NCBI RefSeq assembly: GCF_014202425.1
Contig: NZ_JACHGT010000002.1
Location: 124,001-188,000, forward strand
From: Phytomonospora endophytica
GTDB lineage: Bacteria > Actinomycetota > Actinomycetes > Mycobacteriales > Micromonosporaceae
Direction: 5' to 3'
Length of the DNA stretch: 64,000 bases
Shown: positions 9,342-25,845 of the stretch, piece by piece
Position numbering within the stretch: position 1 is the first letter of the stretch
How the letters are laid out: each line of letters opens with the position of its first letter
Translations under genes and position numbers: made by a program
The notes under the pieces: model-generated
Database searches by the model: none
Told to the model about the DNA's origin: nothing
The model's input: only the letters and a program-made list of their open reading frames with translations

Positions 9342-9682
9342 TCCCATCCGAGACCCGTGCGGAGCTTGAAGCCGTACGCGCCAGCGGGCGCTACAGGTCA
9401 ATGATCCGATACTTCCGCGGCTTCTGGCTCAGCTTCATCATCGGCGTCCTTCTCGCTGTAGCCTCACTCGCCTATCCGCAGCCACATCGCCCCGAACTGA
9501 GCTATGCGATCCTGGCAGCCACCATCCTGCTCCTGCTCCTCACAGCCCTTCTCGGCCTGGTCAAGGGCAGGCCCACCAACGCATTCGTCACCGCCGCCGG
9601 CGGTGACGCTCGCGAGCGATCGCTGCGGATCTCATTGCTTAGAGAGGCCATCGTGAGGGATCTCCTCAAGAAGGCTCCGTAG
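9338..9682 (+). CDS. Two-helix membrane protein closing the ESX-like cassette
   Basis: The 114-residue protein starts at the ATG at 9338, overlapping the previous stop by four bases. It has two membrane helices (about residues 28-47 and 55-75) joined by a short loop, and a basic cytoplasmic C-terminal tail. Translational coupling to the glycine-zipper protein suggests a membrane partner or immunity-like role. Its last 51 bases overlap, tail to tail, the end of the methylase-like gene on the other strand. Confidence 0.65.
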   Translation: MIPSETRAELEAVRASGRYRSMIRYFRGFWLSFIIGVLLAVASLAYPQPHRPELSYAILAATILLLLLTALLGLVKGRPTNAFVTAAGGDARERSLRISLLREAIVRDLLKKAP

Positions 9683-12088
9683 CTCCTCCATCGACGCCCT
9701 CGCCGACTGCGCCGCTGCCCCCTTCTCGAACGGCACCCCGTCGAGTTCCAGCAGGCGGGGAACATCGGCGGCGGTGAGCAGCCCGTCGTTCGTCTCCCAT
9801 TCGGGTGAGACTCTCCCATTCGATCGCAGAACGCGGTACGCGTTCGGCACGTACACGGCCTCCCGCAAGACCGTGCCGATTGTCTGGGCGCCGCTCCCCA
9901 CCACATCTGCCAAGTCCTGGTAACTGACCCACTTCCCGCTCGGCAACCGCTCCAGCACGTGAATGACTGGCAGGTACTTCGTCGGCACCCCCGGGTCAAG
10001 ATCGAACAGCGCCCCCGAAAGCTCTTCGCGCAGTGCGGCCGTGGTCTCGGCCAGTCTGCGGTGGAGCGCGGTCTTCTCATCCAGTGCGCCGAGGATTCCC
10101 GCCACTCGTTGCTGCTCCTCCCAGGACGGAACGTCCACTGAGAGCATCCCCAGAACCGTCGGGTTGAGGGTCGCCACAGCCGAGCCGGAGTTGTTGCGCT
10201 TAATCCACTCCTGCACCGACGAGCGTCGCAGGAAATGCGCCAGGTACTCCGGGTCGACGTCGTCGGACTCGACCCGCAGCAGGAAACAGCCCGAACCCAT
10301 GACCCAGCCATGGTGTTCCGGCTTGGCGACGGCGACCCGCCCCAGGTCCCCGACGCGGGAGAACAGCAGGTCGCCTTTGCGCACCTGATAGGACCGAGCC
10401 TCCTCGGCGACCTTCCGGGACACCGCCCCGAGCGGACGTGCGGCGATTCGATTTCCGGCCAGGTCCCTCGGCGTCACCACCGGCACGGTTTCCAGCCCCG
10501 GCTGTATCAGCGTCAAACGGCGACCGGCCGGCCCCGACTTGATGAAGCAGATCTCACGCAGTTGAGTGGTCTCGCGCTGCCCTCTGATCGCCTTGGTCGC
10601 CTCGCCCAGACGCGCCAACATCCGGTCTTCGGTGGTCACCAGGTCATCGCGGAGTCGGTTCAGCTCCGCACGAAGGATCCCCGGCCCGGCCTCCGACAGG
10701 GTCGATTCCACGGAATCACCGAAGTGGACGCCCGGCAGCAGCAACCAGTCGGCAGCCCTGATCTCCGCAAGGGAAACCACGTCAGCGAAGCCGGCCCGGA
10801 ACGTCGGCGCGTCAACAAGCCATCCGAGGACCGTGGTGCTGATCTCGTCAATGTCCTCATCGGACAGCTCGTGCTGTGTGCGGGACACCGGGCGCCCCAT
10901 TTCTGAGGCGTCGATCAGCAACACGTCGCGGTCTTCCTCGACAGCACCCTTGGTCAGAAGCCACACCGCCACGGGCACGCCGGTCGTGGCGAACAGCTTC
11001 GCGGGCAAGGTGATGACCGCTTCGACGGCGCCCCGACTCAGCATCGTCGCTCGAATCTCCCGATCCCGCAGGCCCGCACTGAGCGAACTCACCGGCAGCA
11101 CGACCGCCGCGCGGGCACCCTCGACAAGCGCCGCCCAGGCGAGCTGGAGCCATGCGAAGTTGGCGTTCGATTCCGGTGGAATGCCAAAGGGCCACAGCCG
11201 CGCGGGGACACCACTGGGGGTCTTGGCGTTGAACGGCGGGTTGGCCATGACCGCATCCCACCCGTCATCGACCCCCAACAGCCACGAGGGGAACTCCTCG
11301 TAAGCGACCGTGAAGGTCCCGGCACCGATCCGCGTCAGCACACGGCCGACTTCGTCGGTCAGGAGAGGTGTCGACGCGAGCCCGGTGAACGAAGGGCGCG
11401 AGAAGCCGTCCGAGTCAGCCACACGGGCCACTTCAAGAGCCGTCGCGGGCGAATCCACACTAGGGTCGAGCACGTTTCGGATTCCTCGGCCCATGACCAG
11501 CCGGGCGAGCAATCGCGCCAACGATGGTGGCGTGGACACCTGGGAAGCCTTCGGATCGTCAAGGATGCCGCCCCGCCGAAGAATCGCGTCGTGAAGCTCA
11601 GCACGCCACAAGCCGTGCGGATCCTTGGCCGCATAACCGTTGACGAACCTGATGAGCAGCGAGCCGACTTCGTCGGTGGGCCACGGTACGTCCCCGGAGG
11701 TCTCCTCCATCCTGAACAGCAACAACTCCGCCAGCTCCTTCGGGTCGGAGCCCTCCCACAGCCGTTCGGCGTCCCGCCACAGCTGTTCCGCCCACTTGCG
11801 CGGGTCGGTCGCCGCCGCCTGCGGCGTGGCCTCGCGTCCGAGACCACGCCGCAGGCGGGAGCCGTAGGTCGCCCCCGGGAGCTCGCCGTGGGCGAGCCGG
11901 TTGCGGGGGATGCGCCGTCCGTCGAGCCAGGCGAGGACGTGGTCGAGCGGGTAATGCTCCTTCCCGCCGATCGGGCGCGATGGAGGAAAGTCCTCGTGCC
12001 GCGCCCGCCAATTGATCACCGCCGACGCGCTCACGTCCGCGTAGTACGCGATCTCGTCAGCGGTGATCAGGTCCTCGTCCGTACTCAC
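9632..12088 (-). CDS. HTH-N6 methylase-like-HsdS-ATL fusion with degenerate SAM motif
   Basis: An 818-residue multidomain protein from the GTG at 12088; a TTG at 12097 is the alternative, only three bases after an AAGGAG. An N-terminal HTH (about residues 8-55) leads into a type I-like N6-methylase fold with a good catalytic NPPF (about 283). The SAM motif I, normally DPxCGxG, reads DPSVDSP. A half HsdS-like recognition domain follows (about 510-690, with KGDLLFSRVGDLG). The C-terminal domain (about 713-765) resembles the DNA-binding part of O6-alkylguanine transferase/ATL proteins (VSYQDLA, RVLRSNGRVS) but lacks the reactive Cys. It is paralogous to the gene at 21653. It may bind but not methylate DNA. 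The transposase-like gene upstream is 16 bases away. Confidence 0.82.
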   Translation of the reverse strand: MSTDEDLITADEIAYYADVSASAVINWRARHEDFPPSRPIGGKEHYPLDHVLAWLDGRRIPRNRLAHGELPGATYGSRLRRGLGREATPQAAATDPRKWAEQLWRDAERLWEGSDPKELAELLLFRMEETSGDVPWPTDEVGSLLIRFVNGYAAKDPHGLWRAELHDAILRRGGILDDPKASQVSTPPSLARLLARLVMGRGIRNVLDPSVDSPATALEVARVADSDGFSRPSFTGLASTPLLTDEVGRVLTRIGAGTFTVAYEEFPSWLLGVDDGWDAVMANPPFNAKTPSGVPARLWPFGIPPESNANFAWLQLAWAALVEGARAAVVLPVSSLSAGLRDREIRATMLSRGAVEAVITLPAKLFATTGVPVAVWLLTKGAVEEDRDVLLIDASEMGRPVSRTQHELSDEDIDEISTTVLGWLVDAPTFRAGFADVVSLAEIRAADWLLLPGVHFGDSVESTLSEAGPGILRAELNRLRDDLVTTEDRMLARLGEATKAIRGQRETTQLREICFIKSGPAGRRLTLIQPGLETVPVVTPRDLAGNRIAARPLGAVSRKVAEEARSYQVRKGDLLFSRVGDLGRVAVAKPEHHGWVMGSGCFLLRVESDDVDPEYLAHFLRRSSVQEWIKRNNSGSAVATLNPTVLGMLSVDVPSWEEQQRVAGILGALDEKTALHRRLAETTAALREELSGALFDLDPGVPTKYLPVIHVLERLPSGKWVSYQDLADVVGSGAQTIGTVLREAVYVPNAYRVLRSNGRVSPEWETNDGLLTAADVPRLLELDGVPFEKGAAAQSARASMEELRSLLEEIPHDGLSKQ

Positions 12089-12104
12089 GGTGTGCAACTA
12101 CTCC

Positions 12105-12359
12105 TTATGCCGCGACGGCCAGGAGTGCCGACGTCGCGTGGCGGTGGGCCTCGCGCAGCCTGTCGTTATCGTTCAGCAACTCTTCCCGCTCGACCGCGGC
12201 CTCGTGCTTCTTGACCCAGGTTCGGATCGTCTCGGGCGCGGGCCCGAAAGCGGCGGCGATCGCCTTGATCGCCTGTGTCTCCGACGGGTAGTCGGTCCAC
12301 GTCTCGATGAAGGTCCGCACGGCCTGTCCGCGCAGTTCAGCGGTGTACTCCTTGGCCAC
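12105..12359 (-). CDS. Transposase OrfA-like HTH protein, solitary
   Basis: The 84-residue product has an IS3/IS911-type OrfA helix-turn-helix (AIAAAFGPAPETIRTWVKKHE) and the start of a leucine-zipper helix (REELLNDNDRLREA). OrfA proteins usually run to about 100 residues and are followed by a DDE-domain orfB. Here the C-terminus is short, no orfB follows and no terminal inverted repeats were found. The GTG start at 12359 has a strong AAGGAG seven bases upstream, and the methylase-like gene follows closely. It may be an IS remnant or a DNA-binding protein adopted by the island. Confidence 0.7.
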   Translation of the reverse strand: MAKEYTAELRGQAVRTFIETWTDYPSETQAIKAIAAAFGPAPETIRTWVKKHEAAVEREELLNDNDRLREAHRHATSALLAVAA

Positions 12360-12427
12360 TGGCCATCTCCTTACCTCTTCGCTGAGGTAGGCTGAGCGTG
12401 ATCAATGCATCCAGGTATGACCTGGAC

Positions 12428-12458
12428 GACGGCCCCGTTGCACCGGGGCCGTCTTTTT
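12428..12458 (+). terminator. Rho-independent terminator with T5 tail
   Basis: A perfect 10-bp GC-rich stem (12428-12437 with 12444-12453) with a 6-nt loop is followed by TTTTT at 12454-12458, the best classical terminator in the window. No plus-strand gene reads into it, so it may come from lost DNA. On the minus strand it is a hairpin in the leader of the unit starting at 12359. Confidence 0.75.
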
Positions 12459-12635
12459 GTCTCAGCTGCCCCCACGCTCCACTGTGGAGCGCTCCTCGTA
12501 CGGTAGCCCACTCGTGAGACATTTTCAACTCCGCGTCGCACACTGCTGCGACAGAACTGAAAACCGCTGCGAGTGCAGCCTCACCATCCAGACGCGGTAT
12601 GACCGCGCAGCACAAGTGGACTCCACATCCCAAAT

Positions 12636-12664
12636 ATATCAGGGATCAGTGTGAATACTGTCAA
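12636..12664 (-). promoter_or_regulatory. Promoter of the OrfA-like/methylase unit, element shared with the PIWI promoter
   Basis: On the minus strand TTGACA (12664-12659) is followed after 17 bases by TGATAT (12641-12636). The -35 and the first half of the spacer (TTGACAGTATTCACAC) match the PIWI-operon promoter at 21552 at all but two positions. The TGGG just upstream is also shared. The leader to the GTG at 12359 is about 270 bases long. Bases 12466-12635 otherwise show nothing I recognise. Confidence 0.65.
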
Positions 12665-12697
12665 CCCAGACCCACAGTAGACCGAGGTCACAGCGAA

Positions 12698-12731
12698 GCG
12701 GCCCCGGACGGTTCACACCGTCCCGGGCCGC
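12698..12731 (-). terminator. Terminator hairpin after the pPIWI-RE gene
   Basis: A 14-bp stem with one mismatch (12698-12711 with 12718-12731) and a 6-nt loop lies ten bases past the PIWI stop codon. There is no T-run. It separates the PIWI operon from the next promoter. Confidence 0.65.
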
Positions 12732-12740
12732 CGCTTGGAC

Positions 12741-15602
12741 TCAGCCCAAGTCCTCCAGTCCGAACAACCCCGGCTGCTCCGGCTCCTCCTCGGCCGGGGC
12801 GGTTTCCGCGTCCTCAGCCTCCTCGTCCGCACCCGACTGGGCGTAGTCACCAATGTCGGCGGCCAGCTTCAGCGCCAGCGGCCAAGCCAGCCCGATCCGG
12901 TACTCCGACACGAAGCGCTGCTGGTGGGTGAACACCGCCCAGTCGCGGGGGTTGTCCCCGGCCACCATTCCGAGCACCGCGATCTCGACCAACTCCGGGC
13001 GAGGCATCGTCTTCCCTGCCTGCGCGCGCACCGGCTTGCCCGCCGCCGAGACCGACTCGGTCAGCTTGCGCAGCGTCCGCTTGTGGGAGTTGAGGCGGTC
13101 GTTCTTCTCCGCAGTGCTGTAGAAGACGCGGTCCGAGGAGCTCTCGTGCCGCCACAAGCCCGACGAGTACCCCGCCTCGGTGATCCGCTTCGTCCGCTCG
13201 TCGAAGGTCTTCGGGTCCGGCGCCCACCACTGTGGAGTCTCCACCCGGTCGCTTCCGGAGTTGCGCAGCCTCACCACCCGAGCACGTGGGTTCAGCTTCG
13301 CTAGGGTCTTGGACACGCTGATCCCGTATCCGATCTGGTCGGCGAGCAGGCGGGGGTTCAAGATCCCGTCCCACCGCTGCCGGGCGTTGTTCGCCGACAC
13401 CAGCACCAGCAGCTGCCGGGTGCGCAGTTCCAGCAGGACGTCCTCGACGAAACGCCCAACGGTCTTCTTCTGCTCCCACGTGTTCGTGCCCGCCGGGAGT
13501 GGCTTGAGCTCGGTGACCTCGCGCAGGATGTCCGGGTACGGCCGCCACGGTCCGTCGGGGAGCTTCGCCATGATCCTGCGCTCACCCGGACGGATCAGCA
13601 CCGCCACCGGCGTAAAGGCCGGCCGGGTGCGGCCTGTCCGGTTGCGCTTGACGAGCCAGAAGGCGAGCTGTTCCAGATCCTTGGGGATCGCGTCCCCCAC
13701 GGTGTGCTCCGGAATGAAGCGCACTCCGACCGCGCGAAGGCCGTCCTCCCAGGCCGCCCGTGCCCGGTCCGGGAGACTGTCCACGTCCTCCTTCTCCCCG
13801 CTGGGCTTGCCGGTGATGCACTGGACGACGTACCCGGCACGACCGGCGCCCACACGGATCGCCTGCTTAGGGTCGGTCGTGATGGATCGGTTGCGCTCAC
13901 CGGCGTAGAAGTCCTTGTCAGGGAGCTCCACGACGAGCAGTTCGGCGTCCACGGCAAGTTCGGTGAGGTAGGCCCGCGTCCGCTCGGCCCGCTCCGCCTT
14001 CGCCTGCTCGTACTGCTTGCGGCCGTACGGGGTGTGACCGTCGATGAGCATCGGCTCGTCGAGGCCGCCAAGGCGGTCGGCGGTGATGCGGACGGCGACG
14101 GTCTCCGCGTCCAGATAGATCACCTGGCGGCCCAACGCGGCGTCCTCCTCGATGTGCACCTCGCTCACGTCCAGGCAGGAACGGGCGGCCTCGACGATCC
14201 GTTCGCGGACCTCCGGGGTCCGGTAGAGCAGGTGCACGGCGACCTCATCGCAATCGGTCGCGTGCGACAGCAGCTCCCGCCACGCGTTGACCGCCGTCTC
14301 AGCGTCGGCGGCAGCCTTCTGCTTGTTCTTGAGGTTCACCGCCTGCTTCTTCTCCGCGGCTTCCAGAGCCATCCGGTAGATCTCGCGCTCGGCGGGGTCA
14401 TCGGTTTCAGGAGGTGTGGGAGGAACGACCTCCGTAACGTTCTTCAGCACCTTCGGAACCTGGAACCGCGGTTTGAGCGCCCCCGGAACCAGCCGAAGCG
14501 GCTCGACTCGCCGATACTTCGGCTCAAGGAACGACGCGACCCACTCCATGATGTCCATGGTCTCGGTGGGCGAAATCCCGAGCTGGACGCCGTGGCGCCC
14601 GTGCGTGGTGTGGTGGACAACCCCCGCCGTCTTGATCCAGGAGTCCGGGTCGGCGCACAGCTTCGCCGGATCGGGCATCCCGGTCGTCCCGAGCTCGGCC
14701 AGCATCCCCGCCGGCTCCCCGTACGACCACACGATCTCGCCGTCCCTGCCCCGTCGCAAGGACACCCGCGACAAGCGCTCCGGTACCGGCGTGTCCTCGA
14801 TCCATGGGCTGTGCGGTTTGAGGTACACACCGATGCTCTTGCGGTCGGGAATGTGGATGCGCCCCTTGCTGGGGCTGCGCTTCCATCGCTTCAACCCCAC
14901 CCGGAGGTTCACCCTCGGCACGGGACTGAACGGCTCGGTGTGCAAGCGGATCCAGATGACCGCCGAGAAGTGGAAGCCACCGTGCTTGCTCGGCGGCCAG
15001 GAAACCAGCTCAGCCCCTTCGTCGGTAACGACCTGACGAAACGTGATCGCCTGCCCGCCCGGGTCGTACGGGTGCTCGGCCGACGCCGAGGCGATCGTGC
15101 GGGCAAGGGTGTCGGGCAGGAGCCAGAACAGGCGCTGATGTGGCCCGGCGGTCCCGCCGGCGGTGGGATTGTTCTCCCACAAGTCGACGACGGCCGGCTC
15201 CCACACGGCACTGCCGCCCACGTCGAGAACGCCGAACAGATCGCGCAGTTCCACCGGCTTGAGGTCGTATGAGGCGCCGAAGTATCGCATCCAGGCCGCG
15301 ACAAGCCTGGTCATCACGTTCTCCGGCAACGCGTTGCGGGCGTACAGCCACGGCTTGTCGAGGTCGTCGGCATTGGAGGCGACGTGCAGCACGTCGGGCA
15401 CGACCGCACTGATGACCCGGTTGAAGGCCCTGATCGGCAGATAGGCGCGGTCTTGCTTACGCCGGGCACGTGCGAGGGCCTCCAAGATCGCCGCCTTCCA
15501 TTCGCCGGGCAGCGTGAACACCTGCCAGCACTCGGTGTAGTCGGATTCGGAGGGATTCGGTTCGAAGGCGGACACGTGCAGCTCGTCGTATCCCATGGCC
15601 AT
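12741..15602 (-). CDS. Prokaryotic PIWI-RE protein (pPIWI-RE_X, MID/PIWI RNase H fold)
   Basis: The 953-residue protein matches the pPIWI-RE architecture: a long N-terminal X region (DUF3962-like, about residues 1-420), a middle domain, and a C-terminal PIWI/RNase H domain (about 640-920). In the latter VVRLRNSG...VETPQWW carries the Arg and Glu that, as I recall, gave the family its name. Family members are predicted nucleic-acid-guided immunity proteins acting with the helicase and nuclease encoded just upstream. The protein ends in an acidic linker and QPGLFGLEDLG, a sliding-clamp-like motif. GGAG lies six bases before the ATG at 15602 (second ATG at 15596). It is the last gene of the operon. 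Confidence 0.88.
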   Translation of the reverse strand: MAMGYDELHVSAFEPNPSESDYTECWQVFTLPGEWKAAILEALARARRKQDRAYLPIRAFNRVISAVVPDVLHVASNADDLDKPWLYARNALPENVMTRLVAAWMRYFGASYDLKPVELRDLFGVLDVGGSAVWEPAVVDLWENNPTAGGTAGPHQRLFWLLPDTLARTIASASAEHPYDPGGQAITFRQVVTDEGAELVSWPPSKHGGFHFSAVIWIRLHTEPFSPVPRVNLRVGLKRWKRSPSKGRIHIPDRKSIGVYLKPHSPWIEDTPVPERLSRVSLRRGRDGEIVWSYGEPAGMLAELGTTGMPDPAKLCADPDSWIKTAGVVHHTTHGRHGVQLGISPTETMDIMEWVASFLEPKYRRVEPLRLVPGALKPRFQVPKVLKNVTEVVPPTPPETDDPAEREIYRMALEAAEKKQAVNLKNKQKAAADAETAVNAWRELLSHATDCDEVAVHLLYRTPEVRERIVEAARSCLDVSEVHIEEDAALGRQVIYLDAETVAVRITADRLGGLDEPMLIDGHTPYGRKQYEQAKAERAERTRAYLTELAVDAELLVVELPDKDFYAGERNRSITTDPKQAIRVGAGRAGYVVQCITGKPSGEKEDVDSLPDRARAAWEDGLRAVGVRFIPEHTVGDAIPKDLEQLAFWLVKRNRTGRTRPAFTPVAVLIRPGERRIMAKLPDGPWRPYPDILREVTELKPLPAGTNTWEQKKTVGRFVEDVLLELRTRQLLVLVSANNARQRWDGILNPRLLADQIGYGISVSKTLAKLNPRARVVRLRNSGSDRVETPQWWAPDPKTFDERTKRITEAGYSSGLWRHESSSDRVFYSTAEKNDRLNSHKRTLRKLTESVSAAGKPVRAQAGKTMPRPELVEIAVLGMVAGDNPRDWAVFTHQQRFVSEYRIGLAWPLALKLAADIGDYAQSGADEEAEDAETAPAEEEPEQPGLFGLEDLG

Positions 15603-15614
15603 GGCGTTCTCCGG

Positions 15615-18600
15615 TCATTCGAGGGTGGACAAGGCCTCGTACAGCGGCCGGTACAGCTGGCGCACCAGCTCCCGGTCGCCGGCGGGCACGCTGGAGTGAT
15701 CGTCGAAGTAGGGCGTGAGAATGGCCCGCATGCTCACCAGGAGGCTCGTCTCCTCACTGTCGGCATCGGAGTCGTAGGCCTCCCTGGGGAAGAAGGCTGC
15801 GTCGGCAAAGACCACTCGCGTCGGCACGCCGCCGCGAACGGCGCGACCGATGACCTGCCAGATCGTCACCAGCTGGTCCCAGGTGAACGCCACGCGCTCG
15901 GCAGGACCGAGGTTCGACCATGCGAGCTTGCGGGCGAGCAGCCTCCCCCACTGGACCCGGGCTTGTTTGCGGAACTCACGCCCGGCGTCGTCGGGACTGC
16001 CCGCGGCGCGAGCGTCGGCGGCGAAGGCGCTGCCGGTGATCTTGCGCAGGGTCCAATCGTTGAGGGCATGGATCGCCAGATTGATGTCATCAGGACGCGG
16101 GTGAGGCCGGGCGAGGAACAGCACCGAGCCGATGGCGGCCTTCCCGTCGTCGAGAACGATGTTGTGGCCACGCTCGACGGCAAGCAGAGGCGCGATGAGG
16201 ATCTGCCCTTGTCCTTCCGGAAAGCGCGCCACGTCACCGCGCCGCAGGGTCAGCCAGCTGTGGTCGTTGTCGGCGTCGTCAGGGACGAGCTGGACGATCC
16301 GCTCGCGCCACTCCGGCAGCCCGCTGAGGTAGGCGGCGGCCTCCTGGGCCTCGACGTAGGAACCGACCAGAAGCAGGATTCGTTTGCGGTCCAGATCGTC
16401 GATCAGGCTCAGCTCGGCGTCCAACTTGGACTCACCGGCGCCGAGGCCGCCTGGGGGCACCGCGAGACTCTTCAGCATCGCCCGCAGGGCGGCCGGGCGG
16501 TTCTCCGGCCGCTGGCCGGACAGGCTGATGGCCTGTCCCCCACCCTCAGGACGCAGCGGCAGCTTCTCGAAGGTCGACGCGCTGATCGCCGACAGTTCCC
16601 GCTCGTTCGGCCGCAGCACCACCGTGACGGGGACGCCCAGGTGATACCTCGTCGACGTTCCCGCCCAGCTCGTCGCCGACATCAGCAGGACATGGGGCCC
16701 GGGACGCCCGTCGAGTGCGCAGAAGCCGTCGAGACGGCGCAACAACTGCCGCCCGAGTCCCTCGTAACGGAAGAACCGCAGCACACCCCCGGGCTCGCCG
16801 CGCTGTTCGTCGTGAATGAACTGGAAGCCGAGGATGTTGCCCATCGCCGCCTCGGCGAGGATCGGCTCGTAGTCGCGCGGGGGGTAGTGCGACAGGACGT
16901 TGGAGACGGGCTCCAGGTTGAGGATCGACTCCACGGCCCGCCACGACCAGGTGATGAAGTTGAGGCGGTTGTGCAGGGCGGCCAACAGGAGGGTGAACTC
17001 CAGACGAGTGACCTCGCCGGTATCGGCGGCGCGCTCGGGCCCCGCCAGTTCCTCCACGAGAGCGCGCAGACGTCGCGTGGTCTCGTCTGTGCGGCCAGAG
17101 GACAGGAGTTCGAGGGTGACATTCGAGAGCCGGTCGAGGATCTCTTGTTCACCCGGGGCCTCATCGGCGGCTTCACCTACCTGGACCGGGCGGTCGCGGT
17201 AGGCGCTCAAGACGCGGGCGGCGCGGCCGTCGGCCCCCTCACCCCAGTCGGCCAGCAACCGGTGGTGGAGTGTGAACGCGCTGAAGTACTCGATGCGGGC
17301 CCACTCGCGCAGACGCTCGTCCTTGAGGAGCAGCCCGAACACCCGGTTGGCGGCCAGGTTCGCGGTGCCGACGGCGTTGACCCAGTCCTCGACCAACCTG
17401 TTCGACAACTGTGCCCTGGCCAGCCGGACGAGTTCGCGGACGCCGTGGCTGGTGACCTCGTCCAGCCAGGAGTCACCGTGCCGTCCGTAGAGGGTCACGG
17501 CCGGGGCGAAGGCGATGTCGAAGGCCATCTGGACCCGGTCGGCCTCATCGACGATGATGACGTCGCAGCGGCGGGCCATGACCTCCAGGAAGCGGACTCG
17601 CTCGTCGATCTGGTGGGACGGGACACGGCTGTGCAGGGCGCTCGCGGGGTTGCCGACCCACACGTCGGCGTCGACCAGTTGCCGGGCGCCGCGCTGCCGT
17701 GGGCAGTCCGCCCACAGTGGACAGCCGAGTCGGGTTCCGGTGCGCGGATCGGCGTCGGCGTTGACCAGGCCGGTGCAAGGGGCGTCGTTGATCGGAAGCG
17801 GCCGTGCGCCCTCGAAGCCGCGTAGTGCGTCGGCGGGACAGGCGCTGGACAGGTAGTCGAACCCAGGGTGGTCATGGTGCAGCATCGTGGGTTCGCCCGC
17901 GGTGTGGCGTCGCCGGTGCAGGCGGTGGATGTGGCGTTCCCGCGTAGACCGACCGACGATCGGGGCCGTCGGCACGCCGACGCGCGAGAGACGGTCAGTG
18001 ATGTCGAGGGAGTCGGCGACGTCGGCGACGAGGATTCCGACCCGCAGCCCCAGACGGCGAACAAGGTAGAAGGCGAGGATGTCGCGAACGGTGCTCTTGC
18101 CCGCGCCGACCATGCCGACCAAGTGGACGAGCCCGGCAAGGGTGAACTCCCAGTCCCCGTCCTCCTGGAACACAGCGCCGGGATGCTCGCGCACCAAAGT
18201 CTCTACCCGGGCTAGCCGCCGAACCCAGGACCCGGGCCGGATCTCGGGGTCGGCCGCCTCGATCACGTCCATCTCGTGTGCACATGACAGCAGGTCGTCC
18301 TTGGTGACCGTGATCGGTTTCCCGCCGCCGCGAACCGGCGCGTTGAAGTCGTGGCGCTCGGCGGCTCGCAGCGGAAGGTCCTCGGTGAAGTGGACCGCAT
18401 GCTGCCGCTCACCGGCCCGGAACACGTACTCACCAACACCCGCAATTCTCAATGCCCCGGTCCGGTGCGGAGGGGCCGTGTCGAGCAGGTCCCGGTAGCC
18501 GGAGTGCCGTTCCCGGCTGGCGGGGTCTGTGTAAGGCGAGGGCCGCCCGGTGTCGTCGATCCGGAAGGTCCGGACACCGTCGGGGAGTCGCCCGTACCGG

Positions 18601-18890
18601 TCCAGGTTCTCCAGCCACGTCCGCCGGCGGACCGACTGGACATAGCAGCGCAGCCGGGACAGCCGTAGCAACGGGACCGGACCAAGCATGGGCTCGTAGG
18701 CACGGGCGTACGGATAGCCGGTCAGCAAGACCCAGGCGTCCTGGGCCGTCCAGTGCGGCAGGAGATCAACGAGAGCCGAGAGCACGAGTTCGGTGTCGAG
18801 ATACTCGGCGACAGCGAGTCCGGCACCACTCGGCCACCCCGGCCGCAGCTTTCTGGCCTCGCGCTCATGCCAGGACGAGGTGTCACGCAT
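15615..18890 (-). CDS. pPIWI-RE-associated DinG/XPD-type helicase
   Basis: This 1,091-residue SF2 helicase has family-specific N-terminal domains (about 1-240, the Y/Z-type regions of pPIWI-RE islands). The motor then shows Walker A GMVGAGKST at 259-267, DEAD at 448-451, a SAT motif (LMSATSW) and motif VI QVIGRAVRG at about 1012. Between Walker A and B lie Cys351, 372, 390 and 396, the right place and number for the iron-sulfur insert of XPD/DinG helicases. It probably unwinds DNA or R-loops for the PIWI protein. Its ATG overlaps the end of the nuclease gene by eight bases, and it ends 12 bases before the PIWI start. Confidence 0.88.
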   Translation of the reverse strand: MRDTSSWHEREARKLRPGWPSGAGLAVAEYLDTELVLSALVDLLPHWTAQDAWVLLTGYPYARAYEPMLGPVPLLRLSRLRCYVQSVRRRTWLENLDRYGRLPDGVRTFRIDDTGRPSPYTDPASRERHSGYRDLLDTAPPHRTGALRIAGVGEYVFRAGERQHAVHFTEDLPLRAAERHDFNAPVRGGGKPITVTKDDLLSCAHEMDVIEAADPEIRPGSWVRRLARVETLVREHPGAVFQEDGDWEFTLAGLVHLVGMVGAGKSTVRDILAFYLVRRLGLRVGILVADVADSLDITDRLSRVGVPTAPIVGRSTRERHIHRLHRRRHTAGEPTMLHHDHPGFDYLSSACPADALRGFEGARPLPINDAPCTGLVNADADPRTGTRLGCPLWADCPRQRGARQLVDADVWVGNPASALHSRVPSHQIDERVRFLEVMARRCDVIIVDEADRVQMAFDIAFAPAVTLYGRHGDSWLDEVTSHGVRELVRLARAQLSNRLVEDWVNAVGTANLAANRVFGLLLKDERLREWARIEYFSAFTLHHRLLADWGEGADGRAARVLSAYRDRPVQVGEAADEAPGEQEILDRLSNVTLELLSSGRTDETTRRLRALVEELAGPERAADTGEVTRLEFTLLLAALHNRLNFITWSWRAVESILNLEPVSNVLSHYPPRDYEPILAEAAMGNILGFQFIHDEQRGEPGGVLRFFRYEGLGRQLLRRLDGFCALDGRPGPHVLLMSATSWAGTSTRYHLGVPVTVVLRPNERELSAISASTFEKLPLRPEGGGQAISLSGQRPENRPAALRAMLKSLAVPPGGLGAGESKLDAELSLIDDLDRKRILLLVGSYVEAQEAAAYLSGLPEWRERIVQLVPDDADNDHSWLTLRRGDVARFPEGQGQILIAPLLAVERGHNIVLDDGKAAIGSVLFLARPHPRPDDINLAIHALNDWTLRKITGSAFAADARAAGSPDDAGREFRKQARVQWGRLLARKLAWSNLGPAERVAFTWDQLVTIWQVIGRAVRGGVPTRVVFADAAFFPREAYDSDADSEETSLLVSMRAILTPYFDDHSSVPAGDRELVRQLYRPLYEALSTLE

Positions 18891-19965
18891 GTCCCACCGC
18901 CGGCCGGGCAGCCGCCGAAGCGACGAGTTCTGTGACGCCGCACATGGTGAGCTCGGCGGCGACCTCGGGACGACAGTGGCGCCGGAACCGTTCGCGGTAG
19001 TCGATCCGGCCCGTTAGCCGGCGGTCGGGAACCACAAGGAAGAACCGGTTCCAGGCGGGCAAGCGCACCGGAGGTGGAAGGGTGCGTGCCAGGAGCCGAG
19101 CGTCGGCACGGTCTTTGGCGTCGATCGCCCACACGGTGCCGTCAGGGAAGGTGACCCGCACGTCGTATGCATCGAAGGCGGGCCACATCTCCACCGTAAG
19201 CCCGAGCCCGGTGAGAAGGCGTTCCAAGTCGATCTCGACGAGCCCGGGGCCGGTGATGAACAAGCGCATCGGGGCGGTCAGCTGGTGCGGGCGGCGGGCG
19301 GCGGACAGCGCGCTTCCGACGCGAGCGGCCCCACGGTCGCGGCAGCGGTCGAGCTCGCAGGCCCATCCGCCGGCTGCCGGGCGCAGGAGGCACCCGCACC
19401 CCGCACAGATCGCGAAGTCCCCGCTCGGCCCACGATGGGCCGCCGTAGCCGGCAGATACACCGACGGCAGGAGATCGGCCAGTAGGAAGAGCTCGAAATC
19501 ACCGAGCAGATCGTCCAGCTCGGCCCCGGTCAGCACCGGACGCTCAACGAGCAGCCTCCGGAACGCCACATAAGCGCCTGGATCCTCCGCTTCGCGGCAG
19601 CGGGTCAGCGCGGTCAGCATGATCTCGTTCTCGTGCCGCTCGGCGAGTGGGTCCGGGTAGGGCAGGTGCCATTCCCGACAGGCATCGGTCGGGGTGCGGG
19701 TGACCGGGTCGATGAGGAGTTCGGACAGATCCAGTCCGAGGCCCCACTCGGAGGGGGCCGCCGTGGCGGCGAGGCGTACGAGGGCGGGCACGCTCGCCGG
19801 TGGCTCCACTTTTGCCCGCAGGCAGGCGAGGACGAGCAGGTTGTACGCGCGTTGCACCTGGAGCGAGTACACGGGTTCTCCGGGGGCTTCGCGCTCGGAC
19901 AGGTCGACGAACGCGGAGGCCAAGAGGTGAAGCAGGTCGCGCTGGAGCGGCACTGGATCGCTCAT
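18883..19965 (-). CDS. PD-(D/E)XK nuclease of the pPIWI-RE island
   Basis: The 360-residue protein has a helical N-terminal domain. A Cys cluster follows (C187, C190, C192, C203, C208), which could form a zinc ribbon. The C-terminal restriction-endonuclease fold has DAYDVRV (Asp268) and AIDAK (Asp282, Lys284) as the likely D...DxK active site, and a WNRFFLVVPD strand. Size, motifs and position match the REase that accompanies PIWI-RE genes. The ATG overlaps the preceding stop as ATGA. It is predicted to cut invading DNA exposed by the helicase and PIWI partners. Confidence 0.82.
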   Translation of the reverse strand: MSDPVPLQRDLLHLLASAFVDLSEREAPGEPVYSLQVQRAYNLLVLACLRAKVEPPASVPALVRLAATAAPSEWGLGLDLSELLIDPVTRTPTDACREWHLPYPDPLAERHENEIMLTALTRCREAEDPGAYVAFRRLLVERPVLTGAELDDLLGDFELFLLADLLPSVYLPATAAHRGPSGDFAICAGCGCLLRPAAGGWACELDRCRDRGAARVGSALSAARRPHQLTAPMRLFITGPGLVEIDLERLLTGLGLTVEMWPAFDAYDVRVTFPDGTVWAIDAKDRADARLLARTLPPPVRLPAWNRFFLVVPDRRLTGRIDYRERFRRHCRPEVAAELTMCGVTELVASAAARPAVGHA

Positions 19966-21494
19966 GTGCCGCCCTCCGCCGCATCCGGACAGATCACCCG
20001 GTATTGACAGAAGGCGCAGGCCCGGCCGGGGGTCGGCGCGTCGGTGGGGTCGTGGTACCAGTCTTGGACGGCCGCGTGGACCACTTCCCGGGCACGACTG
20101 AGGACATCGGCGTCATCGACGGGTATCGGGTGCAAATCGCGTTCGTCGACGGTGATCTGTTCGAGTTCGATCCGTCGAACCCGGCGGCCGTCGATCCCCG
20201 CTCCGGCCAGCAAGACCGCGAGGGACAACTGCAACGCATCATGCGACTGAAGCGGGTCGCCGTTCCAGACCCGCTCCCGGGTCTTCAGTTCTCGCCACAC
20301 CCACGCGCCGTCCTCCTCGTAGAGGAGGTCGGCCTGTGCATGGACGACGACATCGGCGACCGGGTCATAGACCGTCACTGTGCGGTCCATCCGGGCCGCC
20401 CTCACCGACGGCCCGGCCAGCCAAGGGCAGCGGGGCAAGTGCTGCCGAAGCATCGCCGTGGCAACATCTGACGCGTCGGGCTCCAGTTCGTATCCGGCCC
20501 GAAACCACTCTGCCCGGCTAGCGGGAAGGTCAGCGGCAGTACAAGCCCTGGAGCTGCGATGCAGACCGTCGAGAACCGTGTCCACGGCACGGCCGATCAG
20601 TTCTCGCGTCCCTGGAGCCATGCCAGGAAGATTCCGGCGGTAGAGGTGATCCCGCCGGGGGCAGGCGCCGAAATTGCGGCCGTTGGTCGCCGACCAGGTA
20701 CGGCGGCCCTTGCCGTTCCCCTTAATACCGAGCAGCCCCGGAACCTTCGGAACCGCTGAGCAGTCGCCGATCAGAACGCAGCGGTCACAGTCGCCGCCGG
20801 GTCGCCGGATCAGCGGTTCAATGCGCAGCAGGCGGGACATGCGAGCGCCATGAGCGAGGTACTCCCGTTCCGTCTGCTCCGCTGAGCCTCGGTAGAGGAT
20901 CTCGAGGCGCCCGGTGTCGGCGTAATACTCGGCCACCTCCACCTGCGCGGGCATCCGGGGAATGTCCCGCGGCTGATGGGGCCGCTCGTACCAGGTGCCG
21001 TAAGGCGGAGGGGTTCCTGGGAAGCCCTGAGCGCCAAGGTAGGCGGTCGCGAGCACGCGTTCACGTGGATAGGGCGCACCACCAGCCCGGTACCGGGGTA
21101 GATAGACGCGCACGGCGTCGTAGTTCTCCGTGTAGGCCCAGAGTCCCCAGCCGTACAACTCCCGCCGTTCCAGCGGGACGTGAGCAACCTGTTCGAATCC
21201 GGTCAATCGGTACCCGTCGATGAACGGGTCGGGAAACCGCGCCACCGCCGAACAGAGCCAGCGTCGCTCGATCGGCCCCAGGGACCGGACGCGTCGCATC
21301 CGCTCGACCAGCTCCGGCGGCGTCTCGCCGTTGATGAATCGCTTCTTTACCGCAGTGTGGAGTTCGCCGATGAGCATCGGTTCACCGCTCTTCGGCAGTT
21401 GCGACTCCGGGCGGCGGCGCTGGTGCGCCGGGCAGGTCTCGGCGCCGAACTCGCGAGTGGACAGGCGCAACAGGTTCAGAGACTTCTCCGTCAT
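19962..21494 (-). CDS. Cas4/RecB-like nuclease with two cysteine sets, first gene of the PIWI operon
   Basis: The 510-residue protein ends in a RecB/Cas4-type nuclease: Asp389, E402-L-K404 and Gln422. A C-terminal C493-x2-C496-x5-C502 together with Cys21 near the N-terminus gives the four-Cys pattern of Cas4/AddB iron-sulfur nucleases. A second set sits mid-protein (C236-x2-C239-x5-C245 and C278). It is translationally coupled to the downstream nuclease gene and heads the operon. It is not one of the three genes of the published pPIWI-RE island as I know it. By Cas4 analogy it could process DNA ends or guides, but this is inference. Confidence 0.75.
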   Translation of the reverse strand: MTEKSLNLLRLSTREFGAETCPAHQRRRPESQLPKSGEPMLIGELHTAVKKRFINGETPPELVERMRRVRSLGPIERRWLCSAVARFPDPFIDGYRLTGFEQVAHVPLERRELYGWGLWAYTENYDAVRVYLPRYRAGGAPYPRERVLATAYLGAQGFPGTPPPYGTWYERPHQPRDIPRMPAQVEVAEYYADTGRLEILYRGSAEQTEREYLAHGARMSRLLRIEPLIRRPGGDCDRCVLIGDCSAVPKVPGLLGIKGNGKGRRTWSATNGRNFGACPRRDHLYRRNLPGMAPGTRELIGRAVDTVLDGLHRSSRACTAADLPASRAEWFRAGYELEPDASDVATAMLRQHLPRCPWLAGPSVRAARMDRTVTVYDPVADVVVHAQADLLYEEDGAWVWRELKTRERVWNGDPLQSHDALQLSLAVLLAGAGIDGRRVRRIELEQITVDERDLHPIPVDDADVLSRAREVVHAAVQDWYHDPTDAPTPGRACAFCQYRVICPDAAEGGT

Positions 21495-21503
21495 TCGACC
21501 CCC

Positions 21504-21552
21504 TTGACTGGAAGTACAGGAGACAGTACACAGACTGTGTGAATATCGTCAA
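21504..21552. promoter_or_regulatory. Overlapping divergent promoters with palindromic operator
   Basis: On the minus strand TTGACG (21552-21547), 18 bases, then TACTGT (21528-21523) drives the PIWI operon. On the plus strand TTGACT (21504-21509), 17 bases, then TACACA (21527-21532) can serve the methylase-like gene at 21653. Their -10 regions overlap, so the two probably exclude each other. A 13-bp palindrome, ACACAGACTGTGT (21528-21540), sits in the minus-strand spacer and is a likely operator. Confidence 0.6.
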
Positions 21553-21652
21553 CCCATGTGGTTATGATCGTCATACCCTCCCGGTAGAACCATGGGGACT
21601 TGATCGATGACCTAGGATTTCGCCAGCATCGAGAGGTCGGGAGGCCGCACAT

Positions 21653-23701
21653 ATGGACGCCGTCGAAGCCAGTTCGGCCGACATCGCGCGCCTCGCGAAC
21701 GTCCGTCCCACGGCCGTCAGCAACTGGCGCAAGCGTCACGCCGACTTTCCACGTCCCATTGGAGGCACGGAGTCCAGTCCTCGCTTCGACCTCGACGAGG
21801 TTCTAGCGTGGTTGCGGGAGCAGGGAAAGGCAGTCGCCCTCCCAACAGAGCACGCACTGTTGCAGGCCGTCGCAGCCGCCGCCGAATACACCGGGGTCGC
21901 CGCCGCCCTCAACCACGCGGTTCTCACACTTCTGTACCCGCCGGCTCAGCCCGACCCCGGCGCCCCGGGCACACGACTGCTCGCAGACGTGTGTCAAGCT
22001 CGGCTCAGCTTCACCCAACAGCATCCTGGCCTGCTCTCGCTACCTGAACCCGCCCAGCTTCACACCAGCGAATACGCGGTCATCAGATCGGCGCTGGCGT
22101 TGGCCGACAGCCCTGATCCCAGAACCATCGCCGTCCGACTGATCGAGAAAACTCTGGGCCGCCGTACCGGCTCCCACACACCATCGGCGCCTCTCGCGCG
22201 ACTTCTTGTCGCGCTCGCCTCCGACGACGCGAACGCAATGCTCCTGGATCCGTCATGTGGCGTCGGCGAGGTCCTCCTGGCCGCCGTCGGCAATGCGAAA
22301 CGGCTAGCTGGACAAGTCGGCGATCCTGATGCCGCGCTATTGACCGCCCTGCGACTCACCCTCGCCGGGGCCGCACCATCCATGATGGACATTCATGCCG
22401 TCGACGCACTGCGACGGGAGGTCTTCGGCCCCCGGACGGCACGAGCCATCGCGACGGTCATACCCCCCAACGACCGCGACTGGGCCGCTGAAGGCGCCGG
22501 TGATCGCTTCACCTGGCCGCTAGGTACCCCGTCCAGCCGCGATTCCGAGCTGGCCTGGATACAGCGCACACTGGCGCATCTACGGCCAGAAGGCCACGCG
22601 GCAGTTCTACTCCCGGCGGGGGTGGCTTCACGACCCTCTGGCCGCGCCATTCGCCGTGAGCTTGTGCGAACGGCCGTTATCTCTGCTGTCATATCACTGC
22701 CGCGGGGTTCGGTCGAAGGATCCGCAGCGGCTCCACAGATCTGGATCCTTCAGGCACCGAGCACCGAGCACACCACCGCCCCCAGGCCGGTGCTCATGGT
22801 AGATCTCGCCGAGCGGTCACGACGCGATGGACCGGATTGGTCAGCGATCGAGACCGATGCGTTGGAGGCATGGAGGAGGTTCCAGGCAGACCCGGAGGAT
22901 CCGGCACTCACCGACCACCTCCGCACCGTTCCCGCCAAAGAACTTCTCGACGAACGAGTCGACTTCTCCCCGACCAGGTATCTCACCATCTCAACGTCGC
23001 AAAGATGGCCTGATGAAGCCCGCGATGCCGCCCGCAACGAACTGACCGCACTTCTGTCCGCCCTCAACGAAGGCCTAAGTGGCGACACGCGGTTGGGCCG
23101 CGCGGACCTCCGGTCGGCCGGTTCACGAGAACTCGGTGAACTCGAAGCCGATGACATCATCAGGATCCGGCGTCGGAAGCCCGGAGCCGCAACCACCAGC
23201 GGCCCGGGTGGGAAGGTGCTCCTCCCGGCTGACCTTTCGGATGCACAACCACCGACTTCGGTTTCTCAGATCGACGATCCGAACGCACCCGTCATCCGCC
23301 CTGGAGACGTCCTGGCAACGGTCACCACTTCCATGTTGCACGCCAGGCTCGCCACGGACGACGACCTGGGCGCTCACCTCGGACCGCATGTCGTGATCAT
23401 CCGCACCGACGCAGCGATCCTCGACCCCGGGTACCTGGCCGGGTACCTGGCCGGTGAGCCGGCCGACCGGCAAGTACGCCGAAGCCCCTCACATGGAATC
23501 CACGTTGCGGCGGACCTCCGCCGCATCCGAGTCCCTTTGCCCGAGATTGCAACGCAACGCGAGCTGGCGCTTCATTTTAGGGAACTCCAGCGTCTGTCCT
23601 GGCTTGCTGGAACTCTCGAACGCCGCATGCGAACGTACACCGACGCCACCCGTGACCGACTGCTGGCAGCTGGGACGACGGTCGCGGGGAAAGCGGGGTG
23701 A
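21653..23701 (+). CDS. HTH-N6 methylase-like-HsdS protein with lost NPPY motif
   Basis: The 682-residue protein starts at an ATG nine bases after GGGAGG. The N-terminal HTH (about 8-56) is paralogous to that of the 9632 gene (AVSNWRKRHADFP against AVINWRARHEDFP). SAM motif I is intact (LDPSCGVGE, 198-206). The catalytic motif, expected as NPPY/F, reads IPPN at 270-273, so the Asn needed for base flipping and catalysis is missing. The C-terminal part (about 500-680) is a half HsdS-like recognition domain with PGDVLATV and two closing helices. It is divergent from the PIWI operon and shares its control region. It may bind SAM and DNA but is unlikely to methylate alone. Confidence 0.82.
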   Translation: MDAVEASSADIARLANVRPTAVSNWRKRHADFPRPIGGTESSPRFDLDEVLAWLREQGKAVALPTEHALLQAVAAAAEYTGVAAALNHAVLTLLYPPAQPDPGAPGTRLLADVCQARLSFTQQHPGLLSLPEPAQLHTSEYAVIRSALALADSPDPRTIAVRLIEKTLGRRTGSHTPSAPLARLLVALASDDANAMLLDPSCGVGEVLLAAVGNAKRLAGQVGDPDAALLTALRLTLAGAAPSMMDIHAVDALRREVFGPRTARAIATVIPPNDRDWAAEGAGDRFTWPLGTPSSRDSELAWIQRTLAHLRPEGHAAVLLPAGVASRPSGRAIRRELVRTAVISAVISLPRGSVEGSAAAPQIWILQAPSTEHTTAPRPVLMVDLAERSRRDGPDWSAIETDALEAWRRFQADPEDPALTDHLRTVPAKELLDERVDFSPTRYLTISTSQRWPDEARDAARNELTALLSALNEGLSGDTRLGRADLRSAGSRELGELEADDIIRIRRRKPGAATTSGPGGKVLLPADLSDAQPPTSVSQIDDPNAPVIRPGDVLATVTTSMLHARLATDDDLGAHLGPHVVIIRTDAAILDPGYLAGYLAGEPADRQVRRSPSHGIHVAADLRRIRVPLPEIATQRELALHFRELQRLSWLAGTLERRMRTYTDATRDRLLAAGTTVAGKAG

Positions 23702-23742
23702 GCCAGCCGGCAGGCTGACTGACTGACCCCAGGCTGCCAGCT

Positions 23743-25476: not shown

Positions 25477-25576
25477 GTGGGTTCCTTCCGGTACGGCTGC
25501 ACTGCCCAGCCCATCCTAGGTCGCCGACCTTAACGATCGCTAACGCGGCCGCGATCTCCCATGCCGGACACATGTA

Positions 25577-25613
25577 CGAAGCCGGCACCCCGTGGGCCGG
25601 GGTGCCGGCTTCG
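25577..25613 (-). terminator. Strong hairpin after the second DUF397 gene
   Basis: A perfect 16-bp stem (25577-25592 with 25598-25613) with a 5-nt loop lies 20 bases past the DUF397 stop and before icmA. It lacks a long T-run. Confidence 0.75.
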
Positions 25614-25633
25614 AAGAAGCTCGAACCATGGGG

Positions 25634-25843: not shown

Positions 25844-25845
25844 TG

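What the first reader, a model, noticed from the sequence alone, without database searches (positions are those of the whole stretch)
12741..21494. Four-gene pPIWI-RE operon headed by a Cas4-like nuclease with two cysteine sets
Directly seen: four genes joined by ATGA or short overlaps encode a PIWI-RE protein, a DinG-type helicase with four Cys in the Fe-S position, a PD-(D/E)XK nuclease and, first, a Cas4/RecB-like nuclease with Cys21/493/496/502 plus a second set at 236/239/245/278. Burroughs, Iyer and Aravind described the other three as a PIWI-RE three-gene island. The Cas4-like gene suggests an added step such as processing DNA ends or loading guides, which would be a new variant of PIWI-based immunity.
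Basis: partly seen in the sequence, partly recalled or inferred. Interest (0 to 1): 0.92.

Follow-up and report, generated by a model that had tools for sequence, protein, structure and literature searches.

The report
PIWI-RE operon with tandem Cas4 nuclease
Some soil bacteria carry a likely anti-invader gene set built around a relative of the PIWI/Argonaute guide proteins; in one branch its first gene encodes a DNA-cutting enzyme made of two Cas4-like halves, one apparently dead and one apparently alive, which may take over cutting from a guide protein that has lost its own cutting residues.

Summary
Four same-strand genes (21494→12741) encode a Cas4-like nuclease, a Zn-ribbon REase, a DinG helicase and a pPIWI-RE protein. 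The Cas4-like gene is a fixed part of one actinobacterial branch. It is first in 79 of the 80 closest DinG-matched loci; in the 80th the contig ends inside or at the REase gene. It was not found in nine more distant triads. Cas4-positive loci form one tree branch, and the protein co-diverges with DinG (r 0.93).

Corrections: the eight cysteines are best read as two Cas4-type sets, 21/236/239/245 and 278/493/496/502. Both halves model as Cas4/AdnA-type folds; only the second keeps a PD-(D/E)XK site. By alignment the pPIWI-RE lacks its catalytic aspartates. The gene is not new to databases: PADLOC-DB 2.0 has a matching model, PprPDDEXK, beside PprRE, PprDinG and PprPIWI. I found no description in the papers I searched.

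Best reading: a non-slicing PIWI marks invading DNA, DinG opens it, and Cas4-like enzyme and REase degrade it. Guide-making is a close rival. No function was tested.

The parts
19962..21494 (-). Cas4-like nuclease, 510 aa, first gene of the operon; two tandem Cas4/AdnA-type domains
   Evidence: PF12705 4.7e-17 at residues 266-503; PADLOC PprPDDEXK 5.8e-59; AF2 model pLDDT 87.8, pTM 0.88
20727..21494 (-). N-terminal Cas4-like domain (residues 1-256), Cys21/236/239/245, no recognisable catalytic D or K: apparent pseudonuclease
   Evidence: AF2 of this part alone pLDDT 85.7, pTM 0.83; AdnA nuclease domain Z 13.2, 220 aligned, rmsd 4.1; ACE1 Z 10.8; positions facing D389/K404 are W116 (82 of 83 W) and residue 131 (R or W in 74 of 83)
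19965..20717 (-). C-terminal Cas4-like domain (residues 260-510), Cys278/493/496/502
   Evidence: AdnA Z 15.5, 230 aligned; ACE1 Z 14.5, 230 aligned; Cas4 SSO0001 Z 12.4
20283..20330 (-). PD-(D/E)XK core of the C-terminal domain: D389, E402, K404
   Evidence: D 83 of 83, E 83 of 83, K 82 of 83
18883..19965 (-). pPIWI_RE_Y + Zn ribbon + REase, 360 aa; D268, D282, K284 present
   Evidence: PF18156 5.2e-30, PF18154 7.2e-31; Cys187/190/203/208 each 83 of 83; all three acid/Lys residues in 75 of 83
15615..18890 (-). DinG-type helicase with N-terminal pPIWI_RE_Z domain, 1091 aa; Cys351/372/390/396
   Evidence: PF18155 5.5e-24; PprDinG 2.2e-221; G264 K265 S266, D448 E449 D451 and the four Cys each 83 of 83
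12741..15602 (-). pPIWI-RE protein, 953 aa (X domain, MID, RNase H/PIWI); apparently catalytically inactive
   Evidence: PF13111, PF18157, PF13032; S736 in the column inferred to hold the second catalytic Asp; no D at 669-671
21653..23701 (+). Divergent HTH + N6-methyltransferase-like gene; linked neighbour, membership in the system not proven; motif IV read as VIPP instead of (N/D/S)PP(F/Y/W)
   Evidence: PF02384 1e-20; P0005-type gene upstream of the operon in 42 of 83 loci; 31 of 43 such genes lack canonical motif IV
21495..21652 (.). 158-bp divergent intergenic stretch between the Cas4-like gene and the methyltransferase-like gene
   Evidence: read directly; no promoter search was made
9632..12097 (-). 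Second methyltransferase-like gene downstream (HTH + N6_Mtase + Methylase_S + DNA_binding_1); probably a separate neighbour; keeps NPPF but its motif I region reads DPSVDSPATA
   Evidence: PF02384 4.4e-38, PF01420 3.7e-13, PF01035 2.1e-06; motifs

Best explanation
A branch-specific version of the pPIWI-RE defence operon in which target destruction is outsourced. Shown by sequence: the operon, the tandem Cas4-like architecture as a model, conservation and co-divergence. Inferred steps: (1) the pPIWI-RE protein, without its catalytic aspartates, binds a guide-target or R-loop hybrid on invading DNA and acts as a recogniser only; (2) DinG, with intact ATPase motifs and Fe-S cysteines, unwinds or tracks along that DNA; (3) the C-terminal Cas4-like domain degrades or trims the opened strand as a helicase-coupled Fe-S nuclease, in the way AdnA, AddB and Dna2 nuclease domains work beside a helicase, while the N-terminal Cas4-like domain, which keeps its own four cysteines but not the active site, clamps or feeds the DNA; (4) the REase cuts duplex DNA. 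The upstream methyltransferase-like and kinase genes, where present, are a regulatory or sensing layer.
For: Cas4-like gene first in 79 of 80 closest loci, the 80th untestable; one tree branch, SH-aLRT 100; distance correlation with DinG 0.929 over 82 loci, against 0.934 for REase and 0.953 for pPIWI-RE. Nuclease triad conserved 83/83, 83/83, 82/83 and ten cysteines 83/83. Both halves match the AdnA nuclease domain and the Argonaute-associated Cas4 protein ACE1. DinG motifs 83/83. REase triad complete in 75 of 83. No Cas4-positive pPIWI-RE row (0 of 83 aligned) has acids in both catalytic columns. Precedent that inactive pAgos come with separate nucleases more often than active ones: PMC6299218 (passages). 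Precedent for DinG/R-loop targeting: PMC3702460 (section 9).
Against: No function was tested, here or in any paper that I saw for this branch. No guide or RNA was found (no Rfam match in 8000-26000). The catalytic columns of pPIWI-RE are inferred by alignment without the PsPIWI-RE sequence in hand; 6 of 83 Cas4-positive rows keep D in the second column. The 80 loci are the best 80 of 304 relatives of this DinG, so more distant relatives are under-sampled. A related protein (four loci) sits without the triad nearby, beside an ImmA/IrrE-type gene, so the tandem Cas4-like protein can work without PIWI. The only pPIWI-RE protein studied, in Pseudomonas stutzeri, is an active nuclease and its loss changed ciprofloxacin survival and cell division, not phage resistance (PMC10991935, passages).
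Confidence: 0.4

Rival explanations
1. Guide-making: the Cas4-like enzyme trims DNA ends into short guides or hands fragments to pPIWI-RE, as Cas4 trims prespacers for Cas1-Cas2.
For: Cas4 folds from Cas4-Cas1-Cas2 complexes match the C half (7mi4 Z 12.6); ACE1, titled Argonaute-associated Cas4 family protein, matches both halves; Cas4 genes occur in pAgo operons (PMC6299218, passages); a Cas4-like nuclease and Argonaute both limit RSF1010 plasmids in Synechococcus (PMC10653904, passages); first place in the operon.
Against: Triads without the gene exist in cyanobacteria, Proteobacteria, Bacteroidota and some Actinobacteria, so guides can presumably be had without it; no guide has been seen; with an apparently inactive PIWI some other nuclease must still cut.
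Confidence: 0.27
2. Modification-dependent restriction: the divergent methyltransferase marks self DNA and the operon destroys unmarked DNA, a restriction-modification system with a PIWI part.
For: A P0005-type methyltransferase gene lies upstream in 42 of 83 Cas4-positive loci, against 8 N6_Mtase matches in the 8.35-Mb own genome, 4 of them in this window.
Against: About half of the loci lack it; 31 of 43 P0005-type genes, the window's included, lack the canonical motif IV, while 8 of the 9 ordinary HsdM-like genes of comparable length in the same loci, excluding two DPPV paralogues and fragments, keep NPPF or NPPY (the exception is an L049 gene with QLPY). The window's other methyltransferase keeps NPPF but not motif I. 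Loci are related, so counts are not independent.
Confidence: 0.1
3. DNA maintenance: the four proteins resolve R-loops or broken forks of the host, and defence is secondary.
For: P. stutzeri lacking PIWI-RE is more sensitive to ciprofloxacin and filaments (PMC10991935, passages); AdnA, AddB and Dna2 are repair nucleases.
Against: Patchy distribution (6 of 396 genomes of the phylum), occurrence on plasmids (23 records) and company of restriction, DISARM, LeoA-like and integrase genes are typical of defence genes.
Confidence: 0.13

Closest known systems
pPIWI-RE three-gene system (Burroughs, Iyer and Aravind 2013, PMC3702460; sections 7-9 and abstract read)
   Same: All three proteins with their X, Y, Z, MID, RNase H, Zn-ribbon and REase domains, in the order REase, DinG, pPIWI-RE.
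   Different: A Cas4-like gene precedes the REase; the paper puts the REase gene always first and names no Cas4-like partner. Its additional file was not seen.
PADLOC-DB 2.0.0 models PprPDDEXK, PprRE, PprDinG, PprPIWI
   Same: The four window proteins match these four models; PprPDDEXK matches 57 of 57 operon-linked Cas4-like proteins scanned, at E up to 1e-10.
   Different: The library gives names only: no description, no two-domain or active-site account, no system rule visible to me.
Argonaute-associated Cas4 family protein 1, ACE1 (PDB 9iac, 9iab)
   Same: Fold of each half; association with an Argonaute-family protein by title.
   Different: One nuclease domain of about 268 residues against two in tandem; its paper was not in the library, so only titles were seen.
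AdnA nuclease domain (PDB 7sjr, 9np6) and AddB, Dna2
   Same: Best structural match of both halves (Z 15.5 and 13.2); Fe-S nucleases that work beside a helicase (function recalled).
   Different: There the nuclease is fused to an SF1-type helicase; here it is a separate protein and the helicase is DinG (SF2).
PsPIWI-RE of Pseudomonas stutzeri (PMC10991935, passages)
   Same: pPIWI-RE family, next to a dinG gene.
   Different: Active RNA-guided DNA and DNA-guided RNA nuclease with D525 and D610; the window protein lacks acids at the inferred positions.
Cas4 with classical pAgos (PMC6299218, PMC10653904, passages)
   Same: A Cas4-like nuclease beside or acting with an Argonaute-family protein.
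   Different: Classical pAgo, no DinG, no pPIWI_RE REase in the passages seen.

Membership tests
pPIWI-RE three-gene system | pPIWI-RE protein with X, MID and RNase H domains | tested here: met
   PF13111, PF18157, PF13032 above their cut-offs
pPIWI-RE three-gene system | REase protein with helical Y domain and Zn ribbon | tested here: met
   PF18156, PF18154; four Cys 83 of 83
pPIWI-RE three-gene system | DinG helicase with Z domain and Cys-rich region | tested here: met
   PF18155, PprDinG, four Cys 83 of 83
pPIWI-RE three-gene system | Gene order REase, DinG, pPIWI-RE on one strand | tested here: met
   Window; 80 of 80 loci keep strand and order for the genes present
pPIWI-RE three-gene system | REase is the first gene of the operon | tested here: not met
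   Cas4-like gene lies before it with a 4-base overlap; hence filed as a variant, not a plain member
Conserved R and E of the pPIWI-RE family | Invariant Arg and Glu in the PIWI domain | tested here: inconclusive
   R778 and E873 present in the window and in 9 of 9 Cas4-negative rows; 75 and 76 of 83 in Cas4-positive rows; that these are the named residues is inferred
Catalytically active PIWI (DEDX) | Catalytic aspartates as D525 and D610 of PsPIWI-RE | tested here: not met
   No D at 669-671, S at 736; both present in 0 of 83 Cas4-branch rows; column assignment by alignment only
Cas4 (CRISPR adaptation nuclease) | PD-(D/E)XK nuclease fold and active site | tested here: met
   C half only: D389, E402, K404; fold match
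Cas4 (CRISPR adaptation nuclease) | Four-Cys Fe-S signature | tested here: met
   Two sets by sequence, 83 of 83 each Cys; cluster itself not testable
Cas4 (CRISPR adaptation nuclease) | Match to the cas4 equivalog model above its cut-off | tested here: not met
   TIGR00372 13.2 bits against 65; so Cas4-like, not Cas4
Cas4 (CRISPR adaptation nuclease) | cas1 and cas2 nearby | not tested
   No dedicated search; none among the window proteins scanned with Pfam, which do not cover the whole window
ACE1 (Argonaute-associated Cas4) | Same fold | tested here: met
   Z 14.5 (C half) and 10.8 (N half)
ACE1 (Argonaute-associated Cas4) | Sequence relationship closer than to other Cas4-like families | not tested
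   Only fold comparison was made; 8-12% identity in the alignments
Restriction-modification with self-marking methyltransferase | Intact methyltransferase motifs I and IV in the linked gene | tested here: not met
   P0005: motif I present, motif IV VIPP; P0006: NPPF present, motif I degenerate

The most novel reading that the evidence does not exclude
A guide-directed DNA-degrading machine of a new make: an inactive PIWI as loader, DinG as motor, and a two-headed Fe-S nuclease in which a dead Cas4 half holds the strand that the live half chews; with, in about half of the loci, a sensing layer made of a methyltransferase-like protein that has mostly lost its catalytic motif and reads rather than writes DNA, and in 36 of 80 loci a Ser/Thr kinase set divergently before the operon.
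Probability: 0.22. Interest if true: 0.85.

Novelty: new variant of a known kind. Interest (0 to 1): 0.6.

Why it matters
pPIWI-RE systems have had a published hypothesis since 2013 and, in the papers I could search, one studied protein. Finding a branch in which the PIWI has apparently lost its own active site while a two-domain Cas4-like nuclease is retained and co-diverges with the operon gives a sharp, mutagenesis-ready question: is the partner nuclease the executioner or the guide-maker? It would also tie Cas4-type nucleases, so far linked to CRISPR adaptation and to classical Argonautes, to a third guide-based context.

Tried and rejected

Cas4-like gene as a chance neighbour: rejected. 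Cas4-like gene as a general part of pPIWI-RE systems: rejected; no match at E up to 0.01 in nine triad loci (L012, L013, L015, L108-L113), and none of the 23 plasmid records with a DinG relative is among the 2 records with a Cas4-like relative.

Self-marking restriction-modification: weakened by degenerate motifs. RNA or CRISPR-type element near the operon: no Rfam match at gathering score in 8000-26000; CRISPR arrays were not searched for as such.

Papers: searches, 104 of an open-licence library without preprints. One search lists 13 papers with PIWI-RE or its DUF names; I opened two of them (PMC3702460, PMC10991935). Cas4 does not occur in the main text of PMC3702460 or PMC10991935; DinG and PIWI do not occur in PMC5704561 on Cas4 families; PIWI-RE and DinG do not occur in PMC6299218. 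PMC7641849 was a false lead (Piwi-related). The search for the MADS paper found nothing useful.

Rows dropped before counts: A3 uses 56 of 79 Cas4-like proteins (under 88% identity) plus the window's; the DinG tree uses 49 of 93 rows (near-copies over 72% identity dropped, all negatives kept), and its program warns of long branches among the negatives; the PIWI alignment dropped proteins of 400 aa or less; motif IV was counted on 43 P0005-type proteins of 58 methyltransferase-like rows. undercounts methyltransferases where the Cas4-like reading frame was called too long (L062, L083); one search recounts.
Full report
What is there. On the minus strand, 21494 to 12741, four genes follow one another with a 4-base overlap, an 8-base overlap and a 12-base gap. 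Pfam places the last three as the pPIWI-RE island: pPIWI_RE_Y plus REase, pPIWI_RE_Z on the helicase, and pPIWI_RE_X, MID and RNase H on the 953-residue protein. The first gene, 510 residues, matches PDDEXK_1 (4.7e-17, residues 266-503) and the PADLOC model PprPDDEXK (5.8e-59, residues 130-503); cas4 models match only weakly. PADLOC-DB 2.0 of 2023 names the other three PprRE, PprDinG and PprPIWI. The shared prefix suggests that its makers already treat the four as one system; the system rule was not visible to me.

How often the Cas4-like gene is there. A scan of 84,980 species genomes with a DinG alignment found 304 relatives and returned the best 80, all from Actinomycetota. A profile of the Cas4-like protein finds a homologue in 79 of the 80; in the other (L091) the contig begins at the REase reading frame, so the place cannot be seen. 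Strand and order are Cas4-like, REase, DinG, pPIWI-RE in 80 of 80 for the genes present; pPIWI-RE is missing only in L050, whose contig ends there. In a sample of 396 genomes of the phylum, 6 have a pPIWI-RE RNase H match and 3 have a PprPDDEXK match, all 3 among the 6 (both draws show the same handles). Nine triad loci from Actinobacteria (four), cyanobacteria (two), Azospirillum, Cupriavidus and Hymenobacter have no match at E up to 0.01 in the stretch fetched. Of plasmid records, 23 have a DinG relative and 2 a Cas4-like relative, none both.

One branch. In a tree of 49 DinG proteins (39 Cas4-positive, 9 negative, 1 unknown) the Cas4-positive rows and the unknown lie on one side of a branch with SH-aLRT 100, and the label needs one change; negatives have long branches, and the program warns of that. 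The 79 loci fall in at least eight named families, from Streptomycetaceae (42) to Nocardiaceae (1). Pairwise distances of the Cas4-like protein track those of DinG with r 0.929 over 82 loci, close to REase (0.934) and pPIWI-RE (0.953). The simplest reading is one gain followed by inheritance with the operon.

The Cas4-like protein is two domains. The AlphaFold2 model from 57 sequences has pLDDT 87.8 and pTM 0.88. Its C half (about 260-505) matches the AdnA nuclease domain (Z 15.5, 230 aligned, rmsd 4.6), ACE1, titled Argonaute-associated Cas4 family protein 1 (Z 14.5, 230 aligned, rmsd 4.1), and Cas4. The N half alone (1-256; pLDDT 85.7, pTM 0.83) matches the same folds: AdnA Z 13.2 with 220 aligned, ACE1 Z 10.8 with 219, AddB Z 10.3; Foldseek ranks ACE1 first at 1.4e-7. 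Profile-profile comparison of the halves aligns 202 columns, weakly (E 6e-4 for one comparison, probability 28%), with Cys21 on Cys278 and CxxCx5C on CxxCx5C. Over 83 operon-linked proteins all eight named cysteines, plus 318 and 356, are invariant; D389 and E402 are invariant and K404 is K in 82. In the N half the facing positions are W116 (82 of 83 W) and residue 131 (R 43, W 31), while residue 129, facing E402, is E in 73 and D in 7 but R in the window. The N half therefore looks like a Fe-S pseudonuclease. That both sets hold clusters is inferred.

State of the other parts. DinG: GKS and DE-D motif residues and four cysteines are invariant in 83 of 83. REase: D268, D282 and K284 are together in 75 of 83, the window included, and four Zn-ribbon cysteines in 83 of 83; the L020 reading frame is split, so its row is partial. 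pPIWI-RE: PsPIWI-RE needs D525 and D610 (PMC10991935, passages). In the column that I infer for D610 the window has S736; 6 of 83 rows of the branch have D there, and none has D at 669-671. I lacked the PsPIWI-RE sequence, so this is alignment inference. The 83 pPIWI-RE rows are 82 Cas4-positive loci and L091.

Neighbours. A P0005-type methyltransferase-like gene lies upstream in 42 of 83 loci, 15 of them directly divergent like the window's. Of 80 loci with 3 kb or more upstream, 36 have a Ser/Thr-kinase-like gene there (Pfam Pkinase in three that were scanned), 28 both, and 31 neither (a lower bound for methyltransferases). In the own genome there are 8 N6_Mtase matches, 4 of them in this window, and 33 Pkinase matches in 8.35 Mb, so both are more common here than by place alone; but the loci are related: on the tree the kinase needs only 2 changes and the methyltransferase 6 over 39 rows. 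Motif IV is canonical in 12 of 43 P0005-type proteins, against NPPF or NPPY in 8 of 9 ordinary HsdM-like rows of the same loci (same call; counted without the window's P0006, two DPPV paralogues and two fragments). The window's P0005 reads VIPP. The window has no kinase gene among those scanned.

A second context. Four homologues lie without the triad (L021, L022, L106, L107). They form their own branch (SH-aLRT 100) and keep all ten cysteines and D, E, K. All four have an ImmA/IrrE-type gene nearby, and three a match to one small protein of unknown function. The tandem Cas4-like protein is thus a portable part.

Mechanism. Shown: gene set, conservation, models. From known families: DinG-type helicases act on R-loops (PMC3702460, section 9); AdnA, AddB and Dna2 nucleases work beside helicases (recalled). 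Inferred: the PIWI recognises, DinG opens, the Cas4-like C domain degrades, the N domain holds, the REase cuts. I give this 0.40, guide-making 0.27, DNA maintenance 0.13, self-marking restriction 0.10, the rest for something else.

Novelty. It is a variant of the pPIWI-RE system, recorded as a model name in PADLOC-DB but, in the searches named in Tried and rejected, not described in the papers held. New here, as far as I saw: the two-domain reading, the single-branch origin, the apparently inactive PIWI of the branch, the mostly non-canonical methyltransferase neighbours, and the second context.

Noticed in passing
window 21653-23701 and L0xx upstream genes: Methyltransferase-like proteins next to the Cas4-positive operons mostly lack canonical motif IV (31 of 43; SPPT, HPPF, NPPS and others): possibly DNA readers rather than writers.
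   Followed up: partly
L010 14785-16335, L069 5629-7110, L075 6329-7258 and others: Ser/Thr kinase gene divergent from the Cas4-like gene in 36 of 80 loci with enough upstream sequence; the L069 kinase matches PADLOC PD-T4-6 and mad6 models.
   Followed up: partly
L021, L022, L106, L107: Tandem Cas4-like homologues outside pPIWI-RE operons, near an ImmA/IrrE-type gene and, in three of four, a small unknown protein: a possible separate system.
   Followed up: partly
L011, L023, L026, L028, L034, L037, L042 and relatives (17 loci): Conserved divergent genes upstream of the operon, with 291-, 372- and 503-aa products without Pfam or PADLOC match and a helicase-like 566-aa product.
   Followed up: partly
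L075 3432-6332 and five relatives (L077, L086, L088, L090, L092): A large same-strand gene upstream; the L075 product matches NB-ARC, BTAD and TPR models.
   Followed up: no
L045 461-6204; L048 5274-6887; L030 5362-6858: DISARM drmA/drmB-like genes, a LeoA-like gene and a phage-type integrase directly upstream of Cas4-positive operons: defence-island company.
   Followed up: no
window 1-3408: Eco57I-type methylase protein, cut by the window start (the open frame is 1587 aa).
   Followed up: no
window 9632-12097: HsdM-HsdS-like fusion with HTH and a DNA_binding_1 (alkyltransferase-type) tail; motif I degenerate, NPPF kept.
   Followed up: partly
P0001 residues Cys318 and Cys356: Two more invariant cysteines (83 of 83) outside both Cas4-type sets; role unknown.
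   Followed up: no
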